This document shows, one piece after another, positions 51,353 to 58,744 of a stretch of 64,000 bases of DNA. Each line of letters begins with the position of its first letter. Position 1 is the stretch's first letter. The translations under genes and the position numbers were made by a program. Source of the DNA: Synergistaceae bacterium (GTDB lineage: Bacteria; Synergistota; Synergistia; Synergistales; Aminobacteriaceae). The stretch is taken from the NCBI GenBank assembly GCA_031267575.1, contig JAIRYN010000051.1, positions 1 to 64,000 of the forward strand. The letters are read 5' to 3'. Below the pieces are notes generated by a model. That model made no database searches. It saw only the letters and a program-made list of their open reading frames with translations, and was not told the origin of the DNA.

Positions 51353-52000
51353 TTATACGCATATTCCTAATTTTCGCAAAAGCGCTTCGAGGGCGGCGGG
51401 TTCACTTGCTAGAAGGATGTGGGCGTCAAGAGGGTCAGATTGCGTCCTTCCCTCAGGCATGACGTTCAGGCTCGATTGCGTCACGAGCGCGATGTCTCCA
51501 TACTGTCCGAACATAGCGGAAACGACGCTCAAAATCGAGCCAAGCATGTCGTGGGTCACGCTTGGCGTGCTGATCCCGCTAACGACTCCCAACAGGGTGT
51601 TTACGGAGTTTAGGAAAGAGCCCAATAAAATGTTACCTATCTCGCCCAACGCGCTATCTATCATCTCTTCAGACATGGAGGAGAATTCCATCTGCATTCC
51701 AAACTGTTTCAACACGAGCAGCGTCACCAGTTTGTCGACATCCTTTTCTTTGATCAGGAGCATGAAGTTCATGGACGCATCGTTGTCGGATGCCGCGAAT
51801 ACGGCGGTATAACTCGCGTCGGGATTATCGTAGTAGCTGTTCAGTTCGTATATCGATACGAGCTCCGCCCTGGGAACATCAATCTCTACCAAGCATCCTA
51901 ACATGGCGGACAGCGCAGTCGCAGCATGCCCCGCGCCAATATTACCGATTTCCCGGATCGCGTCGAGGTGCATCTGATTCATCGATTTGAGGTCAAGCAT
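51353..52000 (-). CDS. cheC: CheC-type chemotaxis phosphatase
   Basis: CheC/CheX-family protein of 215 residues that removes phosphate from CheY. Two active-site motifs are visible: AIREIGNIGAGHAATALS (near 15-32) and SALGEIGNILLGSFLNSV (near 115-132), each with the E(I)GN core. ATG 52000 has GGGAGGATAATT upstream. It precedes a chemoreceptor gene, which suggests co-regulation, although the downstream gene has its own leader. Confidence 0.92.
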   Translation of the reverse strand: MLDLKSMNQMHLDAIREIGNIGAGHAATALSAMLGCLVEIDVPRAELVSIYELNSYYDNPDASYTAVFAASDNDASMNFMLLIKEKDVDKLVTLLVLKQFGMQMEFSSMSEEMIDSALGEIGNILLGSFLNSVNTLLGVVSGISTPSVTHDMLGSILSVVSAMFGQYGDIALVTQSSLNVMPEGRTQSDPLDAHILLASEPAALEALLRKLGICV

Positions 52001-52166
52001 AATTATCCTCCCAACCTTCCTGAGAACTTGTTGCGTCGATTATATTACTCCTACAATTTTCACATATAGTCTAGCATATTATATGCAGAAATAGAAACAG
52101 TTAGTTACCTTGATTTCACGGCGTCGAGATATTACATAAGCAAAGTTAATAGTTAAATTATTGGTA

Positions 52167-52195
52167 TTGCTTATTTTAAAGATATTCCCTACAAT
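52167..52195 (+). promoter_or_regulatory. Promoter of hutH
   Basis: TTGCTT (52167-52172) and TACAAT (52190-52195) with a 17-bp spacer. The rest of the 297-bp gap between cheC and hutH holds no other recognisable site. Confidence 0.6.
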
Positions 52196-52297
52196 AAAAT
52201 CATCATTTTAACTTTTCTCTAAAGTAGTGACCTTGGTATAAAACCCTGTAAAAAAGACTTTAAAAAAGAAAGCTTTTATGAAGGAGGAAAAAATATT

Positions 52298-53833
52298 ATG
52301 GCTAAAGATACGGTGGTGTTGAACGGGCTATCTCTTTCCCTTGAGGACGTCGCCAAGGTCGCACGGGAAGGCTGCGAAGCGAAATTGGATCTAGAAGCGG
52401 CCGAGGCAGTGGAGGAGGCTGCCGCCCTCGTGGAAACTTGGGCCTCCTCGGATCAAGTGGTCTATGGCATCACCACAGGATTTGGAGACTTGGCCTCCGT
52501 CAAAATCTCCCCCAAAGACCGTCGCATCCTTCAGGAAAACTTGCTCCGTAGTCACGCCTGCGGAGTGGGTACCCCCTACCCTGTGGATGTGACCCGCGCC
52601 ATCATGCTTCTGCGCGTTAATACCCTCAGCCGCGGATATTCTGGAATAAGTCTCGCCACTTTAAACGGACTCGTCAAGCTCCTGAACGCTAACATCCATC
52701 CACTGATTCCCCGCCAGGGATCTGTCGGGGCTTCGGGGGATCTGTGCCCCCTGTCGCATTTGGCCATCGCGCTACTGGGCGATGGGGACGCGGAGTACAA
52801 GGGAAAGATTATCCCCGTAAAAGAAGCTCTGGCCCAAGAGGGCCTCAAACCCATTGCCCTGGGAGCCAAAGAGGGTTTGGCGCTCAACAACGGTACGACC
52901 GTCATGAACGCGGTAGGCGCGCTCGCGCTCTTGGACGCGGAAAAGCTCGCCAAAACGGCGGACATCGTCGCGGCCCTATCTCTGGAGGCCCTCCACGGAG
53001 TGCCCTACGCCTACGACGCCCGCACCCATGCCCTACGCGCTTATAGAGGGCAAGGCAACGTCGCCTCCAATATCCGCCGGCTCATCGAAGGTAGCGAAAT
53101 CATAGAACGCTATAAACAAAACCGAGTGCAGGATGCGTATTCCCTACGTTGCGCGCCTCAGGTTCATGGAGCCAGCCGCGACGCGCTCTCCTACATCCGA
53201 TCCGTCCTTGAAACCGAGATCAACTCCGTGACGGACAATCCACTGATCTTCCCCAAGGAAAAAGAGGCTTTGAGTGGAGGCAATTTTCACGGACAACCCT
53301 TAGCTTTGGCGATGGATTTCTTCGGTATCGCGATGGCGGAGTTCGCCAGCATCTCCGAACGTCGTCAAGCTCGCATGGTCGACGCTTCTCTCTCCGGTCT
53401 GCCACCCTTTATCATTGAGGACTGCGGCCTCAACAGCGGCTTCATGATTCCCCAGTACACCTCCGCCGCGCTGGTGTCCGAAAACAAAGTTCTCGCTCAT
53501 CCCTCCTCCGTTGATTCGATCCCTACATCGGCGAACCAGGAGGATCATGTTTCCATGGGCGGGTACGCCGCCAGAAAGGCGGTCTCCATTTTGGAGAACA
53601 CCCGCAAAGTTTTGGCCATCGAGATGCTCCTGGCTGCCCAGGCCCTCAACTTCAGTCTTTTATACCTCAAGCCGGGGCGCGGCACTCTGGCAGCGCACAG
53701 TTGTATCCGCCGCGTCGTGCCCTACATCCGAAAAGACGAGTATCTTCATCCTCTGATGCAGCGTATCATCGAGCTGACGGAGCGCGGTAGCGTCGTCGAA
53801 GCGGTGGAGTCCGAAATTGGGGAACTGGCTTAA
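52298..53833 (+). CDS. hutH: Histidine ammonia-lyase
   Basis: Cytosolic enzyme of 511 residues converting histidine to urocanate and ammonia, the entry step of histidine fermentation. The MIO prosthetic group forms from Ala145-Ser146-Gly147 in GSVGASGDLCPLSH. Conserved YGITTGFGDLA and DAYSLRCAPQVHGASRD are present, as is SGGNFHGQPLA. AAGGAGG lies before the ATG. No hutU, hutI or hutG gene is nearby, so the rest of the pathway is elsewhere or absent. Confidence 0.96.
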   Translation: MAKDTVVLNGLSLSLEDVAKVAREGCEAKLDLEAAEAVEEAAALVETWASSDQVVYGITTGFGDLASVKISPKDRRILQENLLRSHACGVGTPYPVDVTRAIMLLRVNTLSRGYSGISLATLNGLVKLLNANIHPLIPRQGSVGASGDLCPLSHLAIALLGDGDAEYKGKIIPVKEALAQEGLKPIALGAKEGLALNNGTTVMNAVGALALLDAEKLAKTADIVAALSLEALHGVPYAYDARTHALRAYRGQGNVASNIRRLIEGSEIIERYKQNRVQDAYSLRCAPQVHGASRDALSYIRSVLETEINSVTDNPLIFPKEKEALSGGNFHGQPLALAMDFFGIAMAEFASISERRQARMVDASLSGLPPFIIEDCGLNSGFMIPQYTSAALVSENKVLAHPSSVDSIPTSANQEDHVSMGGYAARKAVSILENTRKVLAIEMLLAAQALNFSLLYLKPGRGTLAAHSCIRRVVPYIRKDEYLHPLMQRIIELTERGSVVEAVESEIGELA

Positions 53834-53938
53834 ATCGACCTGAATTTATACATCCTGAATTTATACATCAAATACTCCCGTGACCGGACGCAGAGCTGTC
53901 ATTTACTCTTAGCGCTCGGTCAAGCGTTTATGTGGTTA

Positions 53939-54155
53939 TCAAGATAAAACAATTCCTTGACACACTCCCACGACAAAAGTCGTGGGAGTGTAAGATCGAC
54001 AAAGACAGCCGACTGAAACCGGTCTTACATCTTTTCCTTTAAGAGTGGATGTCCCTACTCTGAGAATATTTACAGCCGCCTTGATATCCCGATTGATATC
54101 CCGATTGATATCCCGGTCGTGTTCCGCCCCGCACCTCACGTTGATAAACCATAAA
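53939..54155 (-). pseudogene. TnpB (IS200/IS605-type) C-terminal remnant, copy 2
   Basis: From a GTG at 54139 the frame reads MRCGAEHDRDINRDINRDIK then AAVNILRVG, the C-terminal zinc finger/RuvC end of TnpB. The HDRDIN motif is expanded by two extra RDIN units (12-bp repeats at 54082-54117). About 80% of TnpB is missing. The left part is a perfect hairpin resembling an IS605 right end. The 5' limit (just after CCATAAAA) matches copy 1 at 6206-6349 and abuts the inverted mini-copy at 54156. Confidence 0.75.
53963..53990. repeat. Perfect hairpin at the TnpB remnant right end
   Basis: A 12-bp stem (CACTCCCACGAC/GTCGTGGGAGTG) with an AAAA loop. In IS200/IS605 elements such a hairpin marks the right end bound by TnpA and forms part of the TnpB guide RNA scaffold. 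Confidence 0.8.
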
Positions 54156-54352
54156 ATGAATCATGAAACACATCCGCACAAAAAAGTCTCTGAAAAAAGT
54201 TTTGATCTTTTACAATAGAGTTATTTTGCAAAAACGTTCTGCTGAGACTATATATACCTTCTTCTATCGAAAAAAATTCCACTTGCTGAGACGACATGCT
54301 CATCAGCATGTAAATTCACTAACTGAGACTATCAAAAAGCGTACTTTTTGAT
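54156..54352 (-). pseudogene. Inverted, internally deleted copy of the F420-hydrogenase-beta-like gene
   Basis: Read on the minus strand, 54352-54280 matches the 5' region of the gene on the other side (54459-54532) almost base for base. It then joins at a GGA microhomology to the equivalent of 55580-55705, giving FCKITLL(stop)KIKTFFRDFF against FCKITLLRKIKTFFRDFF in the full gene. About 1.05 kb between those points is absent. The copy and the gene are head to head, with about 105 bp between the arms. Confidence 0.85.
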
Positions 54353-54527
54353 AAAACCTCAGAATTGAAATTTGGACTCAAAATTTTGGAATAATTATGG
54401 TAGAATACTTAGGAAAAAATTAGCTATTTTGCTGTTGCTAACCAGTGATAGAGTGACTGTCAAAAAGTACACATTTTGATAGTTTCTTAGTGAATTTACA
54501 TGCTGATGAGCATGTCATCTCGGCAAG
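54282..54527. repeat. Long inverted repeat, about 70-bp arms around a 105-bp spacer
   Basis: The arms at about 54282-54352 and 54457-54527 share long identical runs such as TGAATTTACATGCTGATGAG. They arise from the inverted mini-copy. The A/T-rich spacer holds promoter-like boxes for the rightward gene (TTGGAC 54372-54377, TATGGT 54396-54401, 18-bp spacing). Confidence 0.85.
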
Positions 54528-54544
54528 TGGAGGTCTTGGTTAAT

Positions 54545-55729
54545 TTGCATATCAATCCTATGCGGAAGGAATTATGCACCGGTTGCTGTGCTTGCGCAAC
54601 TCGTTGTCCACGCCAATGCATCGCTATGCATGCGGATGAAGAGGGTTTTCTGTATCCTGTCACAAACGAGGAAAAGTGTGTGAAGTGTGGTGTCTGTGAA
54701 TCTCTCTGTCCTGTATTCAATAAACCCTCAATATCGATAGATCCATTCAACGCGGTAGCGTTTGCTTGCGTTAACAAGAATCAAAATGTTCGATTGAAGA
54801 GTTCTTCCGGGGGTATTTTTTCATTGATTGCGGAGCGGGTATTGGCCAGTGGCGGGGTTGTTTTCGGGGTTGCTTTTGATGAGAATTTTCACGTTGAACA
54901 TCGATATGCTGAAACGAGAGAAAACGCGATGGCGTTTCGGCAATCTAAGTATGTTCAGAGTTGGATCGGAGATGTTTATCGCCAGGTAGAAATTTTCTTA
55001 AAGCAAAGACGGCTGGTTTTATTTTGCGGGACTCCATGTCAAACGGCTGGGCTTCACGCTTATCTAGGCGGAACACATGATCTTTTGCTTACGCAGGATC
55101 TGATTTGTCACGGCGTTTCAAGCCCAAGGGTGTGGGAAAGCTATTTAGCGATGCATAAACGTAGAGCTGCTTCTGTTATAAAAGATGTGCATTTCCGAAA
55201 TAAAAGCAGGGGATGGCGGCAAATTTCAGTAAAGATCACGTTCGAAAGCGGGAAAGAATATTGTCGAACATATAGCACAGATCTTTTTATGCGAGGTTTT
55301 CTGGCCGGGTTATATCTTCGGCCATCGTGCTACGCCTGTGCTTTTAAAACAATACACCGCCAAACGGATTTTACCTTGGCCGATTTTTGGGGGGTACAAC
55401 ATCTCTGCCCTGAGTTGGACGACAATAAAGGAACTTCACTTGTCTTTGTCAATACCTTGAAAGGCATAGATTTATTTAGATCTATTATGGATGACATGCT
55501 GGCCATGCCGGTGGATACCGTTAATTCGGCGCGATTTAACCCTTCCATGGAGCATTCAGCAGCCCTTCCTAAAGATAGAGGAATTTTTTTCGATAGGTTT
55601 CGTGAAGAAGGTATAGCCGCAGTCAAAGGTTTTTGCAAAATAACCCTATTGCGAAAGATAAAAACTTTTTTCAGAGACTTTTTTAGGCGGGTGTATTTCA
55701 TGTTTCATTCCGGATTACCGGAAAAATAA
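54545..55729 (+). CDS. F420 hydrogenase/dehydrogenase beta-subunit-like iron-sulfur protein
   Basis: Protein of 394 residues. Two 4Fe-4S motifs open it: CTGCCACATRCPRQC and CVKCGVCESLCPVF. The Coenzyme F420 hydrogenase beta-subunit domains follow (SSSGGIFSLIAERVL, FCGTPCQTAGLHAYL, DLICHGVSSP). Outside methanogens, such proteins are common in polysaccharide gene clusters beside flippases and pyruvyltransferases, with unproved redox roles. The start is uncertain: TTG 54545 lies 10 bp after GGAGGT, and ATG 54560 is the next; the frame is open from 54500 inside the inverted repeat. Base composition is lower in G+C than the surroundings, fitting transfer. Confidence 0.8.
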   Translation: MHINPMRKELCTGCCACATRCPRQCIAMHADEEGFLYPVTNEEKCVKCGVCESLCPVFNKPSISIDPFNAVAFACVNKNQNVRLKSSSGGIFSLIAERVLASGGVVFGVAFDENFHVEHRYAETRENAMAFRQSKYVQSWIGDVYRQVEIFLKQRRLVLFCGTPCQTAGLHAYLGGTHDLLLTQDLICHGVSSPRVWESYLAMHKRRAASVIKDVHFRNKSRGWRQISVKITFESGKEYCRTYSTDLFMRGFLAGLYLRPSCYACAFKTIHRQTDFTLADFWGVQHLCPELDDNKGTSLVFVNTLKGIDLFRSIMDDMLAMPVDTVNSARFNPSMEHSAALPKDRGIFFDRFREEGIAAVKGFCKITLLRKIKTFFRDFFRRVYFMFHSGLPEK

Positions 55730-55819
55730 GCTTAGATTCTTATCCGAAAAAGAAACAAGGTATGGTATTATGTTGTGGAAATAAATTGATTTTGAGGTAG
55801 TGGATCAAAAAATGTTGCA

Positions 55820-57388
55820 TTGGAGGAGAGATTCAATAGACTACTTAAAAAATGTTTCAGATGTTTTATCTGTGATATGAAAATCAGCGCAATTATGGCG
55901 TATGCCAATCTTTTTGTAAATCTACTTTATCATGTATTGATTACTCCCGTTGTCATACGGTTGTACGGGCAAAGCGAATACGGAATATTCAGCGTATGTA
56001 CCTCGGTGATTCAATATCTCAACCTCTTTCAATTCGGGTTCGGGACGACGTATATGCGTTACTTCATCAAGTTCGAACAGCAGGAGAATCAGCGCAAAGC
56101 TGAGGAACTTAACGGTATGTTCCTTTTAATTTATGCGATAATCATTGTTGTTGTGATTGTCGCAGGGATATTTCTTGTCGTAAACATAGAATCCGTTTTG
56201 GGTGAAAAAATTACCACCAGCGAATACGCTACGGCAAAAAAGCTCTTGGTTTTGATGCTTATCAATATGACGGTTACGTTGTCCACAACACAGTTTACAA
56301 TCTTTGCAATGATCCGTGAAAAATTTGTTTTTCAAAAGGGACTCACTCTATGCGTCTCCGCGGTTAAGCCGTTCGCAGTACTTTTAATCGTTCTTTTAGG
56401 GTATAAATCCGTGGAGGTGACAATGTTCATAACTTTCTTGACATTGTTTTCCTCGGTCATTTCAGCCTGGTATTGCTTCGCAAGGTTAAAAATGAAATTT
56501 CGTTTCTCCGGTTTCGATATCCAACTCTTTTCGGAGATGAGTAGTTTTACATTTTTTATCTTCTTGCAGCAAATTATGGACATAATCAACTGGCAGATCG
56601 ACAAATTTCTGGTAGCCCGATTTTGGGGAGCGAAAGAAGCGGCCGTTTATGCGGTAGGCGCACTTTTTTGTAACGTATATCTACAATTTTCCACGGCCAT
56701 TACTCAACTGTTTGTGCCGAGGGCAAATAGAATCGTAGCACAAAAATTGGGAGATGAGCCTTTATCTGATTTGCTCATTAAAACAGGGCGAATCCAATTT
56801 TTCATTGTTACGTTTGTAATGCTTTCCTTTATTGTTTTCGGCCAAAGCGGGATACATTTTTTCGTGGGGAAAGGGTACGAGAACGTGTATTACGTGGGAT
56901 TGTTTCTGATGCTCCCTCTCATAATGCCGCTATCGATGAACCTTGCCATCCACATCTTACGAGCGAAAGCAAAACACAAAGTACAATCTGTTATCTATAT
57001 ATTGGTAGCTTTTTTAAACTTCCTTGTCAGCATTCCCCTCTGTAGATTTTATGGCGAGGTAGGAGCTGCTTTTGGTACATTTATAGGAATGATTGTGGCA
57101 AATAACATTATCCAGATAATATATATTCAAAAAGTCGGCGGCCTTGATATAAAACGATGGTTCAGAGAAATTTTTTCAATTTGCCAGTCTTTTGTGATCC
57201 CAATAGTCGTCGGAATGTTTATAATGATATTTATAGATACTATGTACATTCCTGCATTTCTGGTATCAGGAGTTTTTTTTACAATGGTGTATATGGGCTC
57301 GGCATGGCGTTTGGGGATGAACGCAGAAGAAAAAAAGATCATTTCTACTTCTATTGGAATCATATTTAAAAACGTAGGTAAAAAATGA
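55820..57388 (+). CDS. Wzx-type oligosaccharide flippase
   Basis: Polytopic membrane protein of 522 residues with about 12-14 helices, of the MOP/Wzx superfamily that flips lipid-linked oligosaccharide. The opening is ANLFVNLLYHVLITPVVIRL then YGQSEYGIFSV, typical of Wzx. The start is uncertain: TTG 55820 overlaps a GGAGGAG sequence, and ATG 55877 (MKISAIMAYANL) fits the usual flippase N-terminus better but lacks a near ribosome site. The gene is A/T rich like its neighbour, marking a surface-glycan island. Confidence 0.87.
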   Translation: MEERFNRLLKKCFRCFICDMKISAIMAYANLFVNLLYHVLITPVVIRLYGQSEYGIFSVCTSVIQYLNLFQFGFGTTYMRYFIKFEQQENQRKAEELNGMFLLIYAIIIVVVIVAGIFLVVNIESVLGEKITTSEYATAKKLLVLMLINMTVTLSTTQFTIFAMIREKFVFQKGLTLCVSAVKPFAVLLIVLLGYKSVEVTMFITFLTLFSSVISAWYCFARLKMKFRFSGFDIQLFSEMSSFTFFIFLQQIMDIINWQIDKFLVARFWGAKEAAVYAVGALFCNVYLQFSTAITQLFVPRANRIVAQKLGDEPLSDLLIKTGRIQFFIVTFVMLSFIVFGQSGIHFFVGKGYENVYYVGLFLMLPLIMPLSMNLAIHILRAKAKHKVQSVIYILVAFLNFLVSIPLCRFYGEVGAAFGTFIGMIVANNIIQIIYIQKVGGLDIKRWFREIFSICQSFVIPIVVGMFIMIFIDTMYIPAFLVSGVFFTMVYMGSAWRLGMNAEEKKIISTSIGIIFKNVGKK

Positions 57389-57439
57389 ATGCCGACGATT
57401 GCGGATATTTTGGGCAGCGGATATTTTGGGCAGTGGGAC

Positions 57440-57489
57440 AAATCTGTTGAAATCTGTTGAAATCTGTTGAAGTTGAAATCTGTTGAAAT
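57440..57489. repeat. Decamer tandem repeat (AAATCTGTTG, 4-5 copies)
   Basis: Four AAATCTGTTG units, one followed by an extra AAGTTG, lie in the gap between the convergent flippase and aminotransferase genes. A neighbouring GCGGATATTTTGGGCA is also present twice (about 57401-57432). Confidence 0.9.
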
Positions 57490-57531
57490 TGGAGAGAACG
57501 TGAAAAAATTGGGAATGTCTCTATTACAATA

Positions 57532-57564
57532 GACCGCGGTCCCCGCTTTGCGAATAGCGCGGTC
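57532..57564. terminator. GC-rich hairpin between convergent genes
   Basis: A 7-bp stem (GACCGCG/CGCGGTC) with a long loop lies 20 bp beyond the aminotransferase stop. There is no strong T-run; a terminator role is tentative. Confidence 0.4.
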
Positions 57565-57583
57565 CGCGGAGGAGTCTTCGAAT

Positions 57584-58744
57584 TTATCCGTTGATAAATT
57601 TTTTGATGCAGTCCACCACTCGTATAACGTCATCTTCCTCCATCAGCGGGAAAAGCGGTAAAGAAATCGCGCTCTCGTAAAAACGCTCCGCCTCTGGAAA
57701 GTCGCCTTTCTTGTAGTTGAAGCGCTTTTTATAATAAGGATGCAGTGGAACAGGTGGGTAATGTACCTGGAGCCGGACGTCGTTTTCGGCCAGATAAGAA
57801 AAAAGCGCGCCTCGAATCTCCGGGGATACGCGAATGGGGAAAAGATGATAGGCGTGTCCGTCGTTGGCCGGCGGCTGTAAAACACCCCGCAACCCTGCTA
57901 TGAGTCCCCGATAGAGAGCCACCAGCTCGTGTCTTTTTCCGAGAAAAGCGTCGAGACGCTTCAACTGACTCAGTCCCAGCGCACAGTGAATGTCCGATAG
58001 GCGATAGTTGTAGCCTAGAGTGAGCATCTCGCTATGCCAGGGGCCATCCGCGGCTTCCGTAAATTGAGCGGGGTCTCGAGTGATGCCATGGTTGCGGAAA
58101 AGTCTCAAGCGCTTGGCAAAGGCATCTTGATTGGTCGCAACCGCCCCTCCCTCGCCGGTGGTGATCTGCTTCACCGGGTGGAAGCTGAAAGCCGTCATAT
58201 CCGCGTCGTAACCAATCTTATGAGGAGAATTGTAGTTCCGATAGCTTCCCCGGTATCCGCCCAAAGCGTGGCAGGCATCCTCGATCAAAACCGCGCCATA
58301 CTCTTGGGCCATAAACTTGAAGGGCTCAATGTCGAAAGGGTAACCCGCGAAACTGACGGGAAGGATTACCTTGATCTTTCGAGGCAGTTCTTCAAGCTTC
58401 CGTTCCGCCTTGATGGGATCCATACAGAGCGTCCCGCGATCAATATCCGCGAAAACAGGCTCCGCCCCTACGTAAAGCGCCGCGTTTGCCGTCGCCGCAA
58501 AGGTCAAGGGCGTGGTCAACAGCCAGTCTCCTTCTTTTAATCCAGCCGCCGCCACGGCGCCATGTAACGCGGCGGTTCCACTAGAAAACACAATGACATG
58601 GCGTACTCCGATGTACTCCGCCAATGCTTTTTCGAAACGATCAACGACGGGTCCTTGTGTGAGCCAGTCTCCCTGCAGAGCTTCTGTCACCTCGGAGATA
58701 TCGTCACAGTCGATCCACTGTCGTCCGTAAGATAAGGACTTCAA
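57584..58744 (-). CDS. PseC-type UDP-sugar aminotransferase (DegT/DnrJ/EryC1 family)
   Basis: PLP-dependent aminotransferase of 386 residues. It opens with SYGRQWIDCDDISEVTEALQ and GDWLTQGPVVDRFE, and the PLP lysine is in FSFHPVKQITTGEGGA. These features and the length match PseC, which makes UDP-4-amino-4,6-dideoxy-AltNAc in pseudaminic acid synthesis for flagellin or surface glycans. No PseB, PseH, PseG, PseI or PseF gene is in the window, so the exact sugar is not certain. ArnB-like activity is the alternative. Confidence 0.85.
   Translation of the reverse strand: MKSLSYGRQWIDCDDISEVTEALQGDWLTQGPVVDRFEKALAEYIGVRHVIVFSSGTAALHGAVAAAGLKEGDWLLTTPLTFAATANAALYVGAEPVFADIDRGTLCMDPIKAERKLEELPRKIKVILPVSFAGYPFDIEPFKFMAQEYGAVLIEDACHALGGYRGSYRNYNSPHKIGYDADMTAFSFHPVKQITTGEGGAVATNQDAFAKRLRLFRNHGITRDPAQFTEAADGPWHSEMLTLGYNYRLSDIHCALGLSQLKRLDAFLGKRHELVALYRGLIAGLRGVLQPPANDGHAYHLFPIRVSPEIRGALFSYLAENDVRLQVHYPPVPLHPYYKKRFNYKKGDFPEAERFYESAISLPLFPLMEEDDVIRVVDCIKKFING

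What the first reader, a model, noticed from the sequence alone, without database searches (positions are those of the whole stretch)
54156..55729. Head-to-head, internally deleted inverted copy of an iron-sulfur protein gene
The segment 54156-54352, read leftward, is the 5' leader of the gene at 54545 joined to its last part, with about 1.05 kb removed at a GGA microhomology. The arrangement gives about 70-bp inverted arms around a 105-bp promoter-bearing spacer, plus a second pair of arms at the 3' ends. It looks like inverted duplication followed by deletion. It might affect expression through a large hairpin, antisense pairing with the gene's 3' end, or inversion of the spacer.
Basis: seen in the sequence. 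Interest (0 to 1): 0.62.

Follow-up and report, generated by a model that had tools for sequence, protein, structure and literature searches.

The report
Flippable promoter before polysaccharide genes
The 'spacer' between the inverted arms is one of about 14 near-identical DNA switches in this bacterium, each a promoter between two matching recombination sites that a serine recombinase can probably flip to turn a neighbouring gene, usually a surface-polysaccharide gene, on or off; the same kind of switch occurs in many gut Clostridia and other phyla.

Summary
54155-54351, read leftward, is the gene's leader joined to its 3' end, with 1051 bp missing at a GGA. The important part is the 'spacer'. 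Segment 54330-54481 is one of about 14 copies of a ~152-bp module in this Synergistaceae genome, bounded by near-palindromic 24-bp sites TATCAAAARGYGTACTTTTTGATA. Paralogous loci carry the same near-gene flank but the module in opposite orientation. The same site pair occurs in at least 119 stretches of other genomes, mostly Clostridia. About half the sampled loci have a conserved serine recombinase whose 3' end abuts the pair. In 110 non-redundant pairs the central dinucleotide is always identical and inverted (0 mismatches, 57 and 39 expected) while neighbouring bases vary, as a serine recombinase's 2-bp crossover predicts. Site spacing follows the DNA helix (period 10.55 bp). I conclude it is an invertible promoter, drawn here ON for an FrhB-type iron-sulfur protein plus flippase operon. 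The mini-copy is a decayed head-to-head relic, probably without function. Inversion in living cells was not observed directly; no reads were available.

The parts
54330..54353 (.). Left recombination site TATCAAAAAGCGTACTTTTTGATA; crossover dinucleotide GT at 54341-54342
   Evidence: site family and core rule
54458..54481 (.). Right recombination site TGTCAAAAAGTACACATTTTGATA; crossover dinucleotide AC at 54469-54470, i.e. GT on the other strand (inverted)
54342..54469 (+). Invertible segment, 128 bp centre to centre; as assembled its promoter points right, toward the FrhB-type gene (ON)
   Evidence: inverting this segment raises identity with the C38 paralogous locus from 155/246 to 214/247
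54378..54406 (+). Inferred promoter: -35 TCAAAA (54378-54383), 17-bp spacer, extended -10 TGG TAGAAT (54398-54406); other copies have TATAAT, relatives TTGAAA-17-TGTAAT
   Evidence: conserved across copies; the strict consensus scan does not call it in this copy
54482..54544 (+). Leader (5' UTR) of the FrhB-type gene with GGAGG at 54529-54533
   Evidence: sequence; leader conserved at C38
54545..55729 (+). FrhB/FdhB beta-subunit-like protein with 4Fe-4S domains (ORF open from 54500; TTG 54545 is a plausible start)
   Evidence: Pfam PF04432, PF04422, Fer4
55820..57388 (+). Polysaccharide flippase-like gene (Polysacc_synt), presumed same operon
54278..54322 (-). Relic leader, inverted copy of 54487-54531 (96%)
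54155..54283 (-). Relic 3' end of a second FrhB-type gene, inverted copy of 55577-55709 (80-85%), joined to the relic leader at GGA
53939..54139 (-). Remnant of a TnpB C-terminal end (IS200/IS605 group) to the left of the relic; similar remnants lie near several other module copies
   Evidence: ORF text; repeats

Best explanation
The 'spacer with arms' is an invertible promoter (phase-variation switch). Two near-palindromic 24-bp sites in inverted orientation, 128 bp apart, bound a segment with one outward promoter. A small serine recombinase, probably the intact one at contig C25:22340 acting in trans on about 14 such modules, cuts both sites at the central dinucleotide and rejoins them with the segment flipped. 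As assembled, the promoter faces the FrhB-type gene and flippase (ON). Flipped, it would fire into the relic and the 3' end of the histidine ammonia-lyase gene (OFF). The mini-copy is the remnant of a second, head-to-head FrhB-type gene that lost its middle by a deletion at GGA. Recombination between sites of different modules could have created that head-to-head arrangement. Shown by sequence: site family, core rule, helical spacing, opposite orientations at paralogous loci, linkage to the recombinase. Inferred: active flipping in this strain, transcription from the promoter, identity of the trans-acting enzyme, origin of the mini-copy.
For: (1) About 14 copies in the genome; 27 sites, control 0. 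(2) Two paralogous pairs keep the near-gene flank but have the module inverted: FrhB window vs C38, 151/265 rising to 210/266 after inversion; glycosyltransferase C25 vs C65, 131/267 rising to 194/268. (3) Both ends of contig C73 share an identical 119-bp flank ending in the site, followed by the module in opposite orientations. (4) In 110 non-redundant pairs from several phyla the central dinucleotide has 0 mismatches at both positions (57 and 39 expected) while adjacent positions vary; all non-palindromic cores are inverted, none direct. (5) Spacing phase-locked at 10.55 bp, R = 0.71 against a null maximum of 0.34. (6) A serine recombinase, 40-85% identical to the C25 one, sits at about half the sampled loci, in 38 of 39 full-length cases with its 3' end at the pair; catalytic motifs are conserved. 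(7) Genes beside the modules are glycosyltransferases, TupA-like, GHMP kinase, flippase, typical targets of phase variation.
Against: No reads or strains of this species were available, so both orientations at this very locus were not seen. The promoter in the window copy is weak by consensus (TCAAAA, TAGAAT) and the scan does not call it. The inversion evidence within the genome rests on paralogous rather than orthologous loci. The C73 fork could be a two-copy repeat instead of a mixed population. The C25 recombinase's own adjacent module is degraded, so its activity is unproven.
Confidence: 0.88

Rival explanations
1. The module is a MITE: a small non-autonomous transposon with terminal inverted repeats that spread in the genome by transposition.
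For: About 14 copies of ~152 bp with terminal inverted repeats, and gene remnants nearby.
Against: No target-site duplication seen in the aligned flanks; several copies share flanks for ~50 bp beyond the supposed ends; in other phyla the same site pair bounds unrelated sequence; the core-dinucleotide rule and helical spacing are not expected of transposon ends.
Confidence: 0.05
2. The two palindromes are operators of a DNA-looping repressor, which would explain helical phasing without recombination.
For: Palindromic sites around a promoter, spaced in helical phase.
Against: A symmetric repressor gives no reason for non-palindromic centres to be identical and always inverted (0 of 110 mismatches while neighbours vary), nor for inverted modules at paralogous loci. 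A second role as operator is not excluded.
Confidence: 0.05
3. A fossil switch: the module was invertible in the past but is now frozen here, so the window shows a constitutively oriented promoter and a decayed inverted duplicate.
For: The two sites of the window differ at three positions outside the core; the mini-copy is decayed; the C25 recombinase's own module is degraded.
Against: Core dinucleotides match and both sites stay within the consensus; one recombinase ORF is intact with its catalytic motifs; the identical 119-bp flank with opposite orientations at C73 suggests a recent flip.
Confidence: 0.12
4. One reading: the mini-copy acts on the gene through antisense RNA or a large hairpin.
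For: Real 80-96% inverted similarity.
Against: A flipped promoter would make sense-like RNA; antisense needs read-through from upstream; no Rfam family or terminator found; inverted flanks recur at other modules where no such pairing gene exists.
Confidence: 0.04

Closest known systems
Bacteroides fragilis Mpi system (serine recombinase flipping many capsule promoters)
   Same: A serine recombinase thought to act in trans on many short invertible promoters before surface-polysaccharide operons.
   Different: This recombinase is not an Mpi equivalog (46.6 bits, cut-off 272); different phylum, site sequence and promoter.
Hin/Gin/Cin DNA invertases with hix/gix/cix sites
   Same: Small serine recombinases, 24-26-bp near-palindromic sites in inverted orientation, 2-bp core; Gin is 36% identical over 152 aa; half-site TATC-AAAA resembles gix.
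   Different: Segment is 128-148 bp instead of kilobases; no Fis enhancer is known or sought here; full-site similarity to gix is no better than shuffled sequence; the recombinase lies outside the segment, its 3' end at a site.
Sin / Tn552 resolvase family
   Same: Best solved relative of the recombinase (2r0q, E = 8e-32).
   Different: Sin resolves direct repeats; here sites are inverted and the expected product is inversion.
Invertons of gut Firmicutes found by PhaseFinder (PMC11892184)
   Same: Short inverted repeats around promoters near surface genes; novel motifs reported in Firmicutes_A.
   Different: Its main text links the Firmicutes_A group 139 to tyrosine-type recombinases; no text match to this site in the held library. 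Its supplements could not be read.

Membership tests
Invertible promoter (inverton) | Inverted repeats flanking a promoter | tested here: met
   Sites 54330-54353 and 54458-54481; promoter by conservation, not by consensus scan
Invertible promoter (inverton) | Both orientations occur | tested here: met
   At paralogous loci of the same genome and at the two ends of C73; not at the same locus in reads
Invertible promoter (inverton) | Orientation changes transcription | not testable with these tools
   No RNA data
Serine-recombinase site (2-bp crossover) | Central dinucleotide identical in both sites and inverted | tested here: met
   0 mismatches at both positions in 110 non-redundant pairs
Hin/Gin invertase | Catalytic serine recombinase domain with C-terminal DNA-binding region | tested here: met
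   PF00239; alignment to Sin runs into the C-terminal region; conserved motifs in 39 relatives
Hin/Gin invertase | hix/gix-like site over its whole length | tested here: not met
   Best match in the Mu G region 15 of 24, same as shuffles; only one half-site resembles gix
Hin/Gin invertase | Fis-bound recombinational enhancer | not tested
   -
Mpi family | Matches the Mpi equivalog model above cut-off | tested here: not met
   46.6 bits against 272
MITE | Target-site duplication and fixed ends | tested here: not met
   None visible in aligned flanks; flanks shared beyond the ends

The most novel reading that the evidence does not exclude
One recombinase serves ~14 interchangeable modules and recombines them with each other as well as within themselves. 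Promoter flips would then be coupled to exchange of gene leaders between loci and to large chromosomal inversions: C73, 118 kb, carries the same flank in inverted orientation at both ends, and C38 is a hybrid of two flank types. The head-to-head mini-copy in the window would be a scar of such an exchange.
Probability: 0.25. Interest if true: 0.75.

Novelty: new variant of a known kind. Interest (0 to 1): 0.6.

Why it matters
Promoter inversion is a known kind of switch, best studied in Bacteroides. Here a single, sharply defined site family with its own serine recombinase is traced across Synergistota, Clostridia, Negativicutes, Coriobacteriia and Desulfovibrio. Two rules read straight from the sequences (identical inverted core dinucleotides; site spacing locked to the helical repeat) make the mechanism directly testable and let such switches be found in any genome by pattern alone. 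It predicts surface-polysaccharide phase variation in Synergistaceae, on which I found no paper.

Tried and rejected
MITE reading: rejected for lack of target duplications and because of the core rule. Strict promoter/terminator scan: nothing called. Rfam: nothing at 52000-58000. Plasmid collection with the locus: no match. hix/gix identity: only a half-site resemblance; the phage P1 record fetched first held a Tn21 resolvase, not Cin, and was of no use. Promoter orientation relative to the recombinase in unrelated loci: 9 away, 13 toward, 17 ambiguous by a crude score, too weak to lean on. An attempt to centre a family search on a locus failed, replaced by searches of 39 named genomes. IS607-type recombinases at C9, C73, C36, C17 and C58 were set aside as transposases by sequence (C36 confirmed).

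Full report
Check of the observation. The inverted arms are present as described. Reading 54351 to 54155 on the minus strand gives the leader of the FrhB-type gene followed directly by the gene's last ~130 bp; the join is at GGA, and 1051 bp (54532-55582) are missing. The 3' relic aligns at 80% with E = 3e-28, the whole at 173/210 identities. This is not chance.

What the spacer is. Searching the own genome with 54150-54560 gave many further matches, nearly all to 54329-54483. That stretch recurs at about 14 loci, 67-95% identical. Its ends are near-palindromic 24-mers TATCAAAARGYGTACTTTTTGATA: 27 in the genome, 0 for the reversed-pattern control, almost all in pairs 128 bp apart. So the 'arms' are composite. 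The inner 24 bp are sites of a dispersed module; only the outer part (54278-54322 / 54487-54531) and the 3' relic are the duplicated gene.

Inversion within the genome. The C38 locus has a fragment of the same FrhB-type gene with the same leader, but its module is reversed: identity with the window rises from 155/246 to 214/247 when the window's 54342-54469 is inverted in silico. The glycosyltransferase genes at C25 and C65 show the same (131/267 to 194/268). In both comparisons the near-gene flank is conserved and the far flank is not. Oriented toward their gene: window and C25. Oriented away: C38, C65, both TupA-like loci, the GT2 locus and the GHMP-kinase locus. The two ends of contig C73 share 119 identical bases that end inside the site, then continue into the module in opposite orientations. 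That flank occurs identically nowhere else in the assembly. The length equals a common assembler k, so this looks like an assembly-graph fork at the site, though a two-copy repeat would look alike (inference).

Distribution. The paired-site pattern found at least 119 stretches in GTDB genomes (scan stopped at its limit): mainly Lachnospiraceae and Oscillospiraceae and other Clostridia, also Selenomonas, Coriobacteriales, Synergistaceae and Desulfovibrio. In the window's own class, 7 of 183 genomes have it, control 0. The window genome shares a family with a genome whose locus coincides with Synergistaceae bacterium Im510_bin125 (L090 = L168). In other phyla the sequence between the sites is unrelated, so the sites are what is conserved.

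The enzyme. Of 95 loci, 47 hold a homolog of the C25 serine recombinase. Of 39 near-full-length cases, 38 have the gene's 3' end at the site pair. The C25 protein matches Pfam Resolvase; its best solved relative is Sin, then gamma-delta resolvase and Gin. It is far below the Mpi equivalog cut-off. Catalytic motifs (Y.RVS, SG, SIdRlgR) are conserved in 39 relatives. In the own genome it is the only intact recombinase of this kind among nine PF00239 matches; most of the others are IS607 transposases, remnants or disrupted.

Mechanism from sequence statistics. In 110 non-redundant pairs the two central bases never differ between one site and the reverse complement of the other (57 and 39 mismatches expected if independent), whereas positions around them differ freely (for example 44, 9, 4, 8 and 20 mismatches). 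All non-palindromic cores are in inverted orientation. This is the requirement of a 2-bp staggered exchange by a serine recombinase giving inversion (established knowledge of the Hin/Gin/resolvase class). One pair of neighbouring sites 82 bp apart in L046 has direct cores; there a third site lies next to a normal pair. The distance between sites clusters at 123-129, 134-139 and 145-148 with nothing between; best period 10.55 bp, R = 0.71 for 112 non-redundant pairs. In 39 genomes there were 54 pairs at 118-148 bp, one at 156 bp and none at 87-117 bp. Such phasing fits synapsis of two sites on one short DNA loop. Caveat: the first scan itself was limited to 118-148 bp, and the 39 genomes were picked because they held a pair in that range.

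Targets. Window: FrhB-type iron-sulfur protein and a flippase; elsewhere in the genome glycosyltransferases, a TupA-like protein and a GHMP kinase. In other phyla: BspA-type leucine-rich repeats, S-layer, Ig-like, Wzz, LicD and other surface genes, plus a TnpB-like family.

The mini-copy. It is the remnant of a second head-to-head copy. Several modules have inverted flanks extending ~50 bp beyond the sites, and C38 has the FrhB leader on one side and the common flank on the other. Site-to-site recombination between loci would produce both (inference, about 0.5). I see no good evidence that the relic has a function.

Literature. Promoter inversion is well known (PMC11868660, PMC11892184). The site sequence occurs in no held paper on this subject (the single text match is an unrelated mouse paper), and no paper on invertible promoters in Synergistota was found. 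Subscription journals and supplements were out of reach, so a prior description cannot be excluded; hence 'new variant of a known kind'.

Noticed in passing
L049 2766-4076 -, L061 3119-4465 -, L079 5895-7205 +, L081 2140-3531 -, L083 2326-3654 -, L092 6021-7382 +, L114 2684-4030 +: In seven Clostridia loci the gene right after the invertible promoter is a TnpB homolog (zinc finger kept, 55-64% identical to the first) whose RuvC motifs lack the acidic residues, so probably nuclease-dead like TldR. The shared promoter motif points toward the gene in L081 and L114 and away in the other five: a phase-variable RNA-guided regulator is possible..
   Followed up: partly
G000 contig C73, both ends (L010 1-119, L014 2215-2333): Identical 119-bp inverted ends, each leading into a module in opposite orientation; possible 118-kb inversion or assembly fork.
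   Followed up: partly
window 53939-54139: TnpB C-terminal remnant with a hairpin end (53962-53991); ~175-bp relatives lie near modules at C47, C25, C65 and C53.
   Followed up: no
window 54415-54440 and Synergistaceae relatives L168, L173, L176: TAGCTATTTTGCTGTTG just downstream of the promoter is conserved between genera; a possible leader or antitermination signal.
   Followed up: no
phage records MT836372, MT835780, MT836284, MT836625; L181-L185: Human-gut phage contigs encode relatives of the recombinase (45-64% identity), and five IMG/VR contigs hold the paired sites.
   Followed up: no
window 57400-57490: Short tandem repeats (GCGGATATTTTGGGCAG and AAATCTGTTG units) after the flippase gene.
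   Followed up: no
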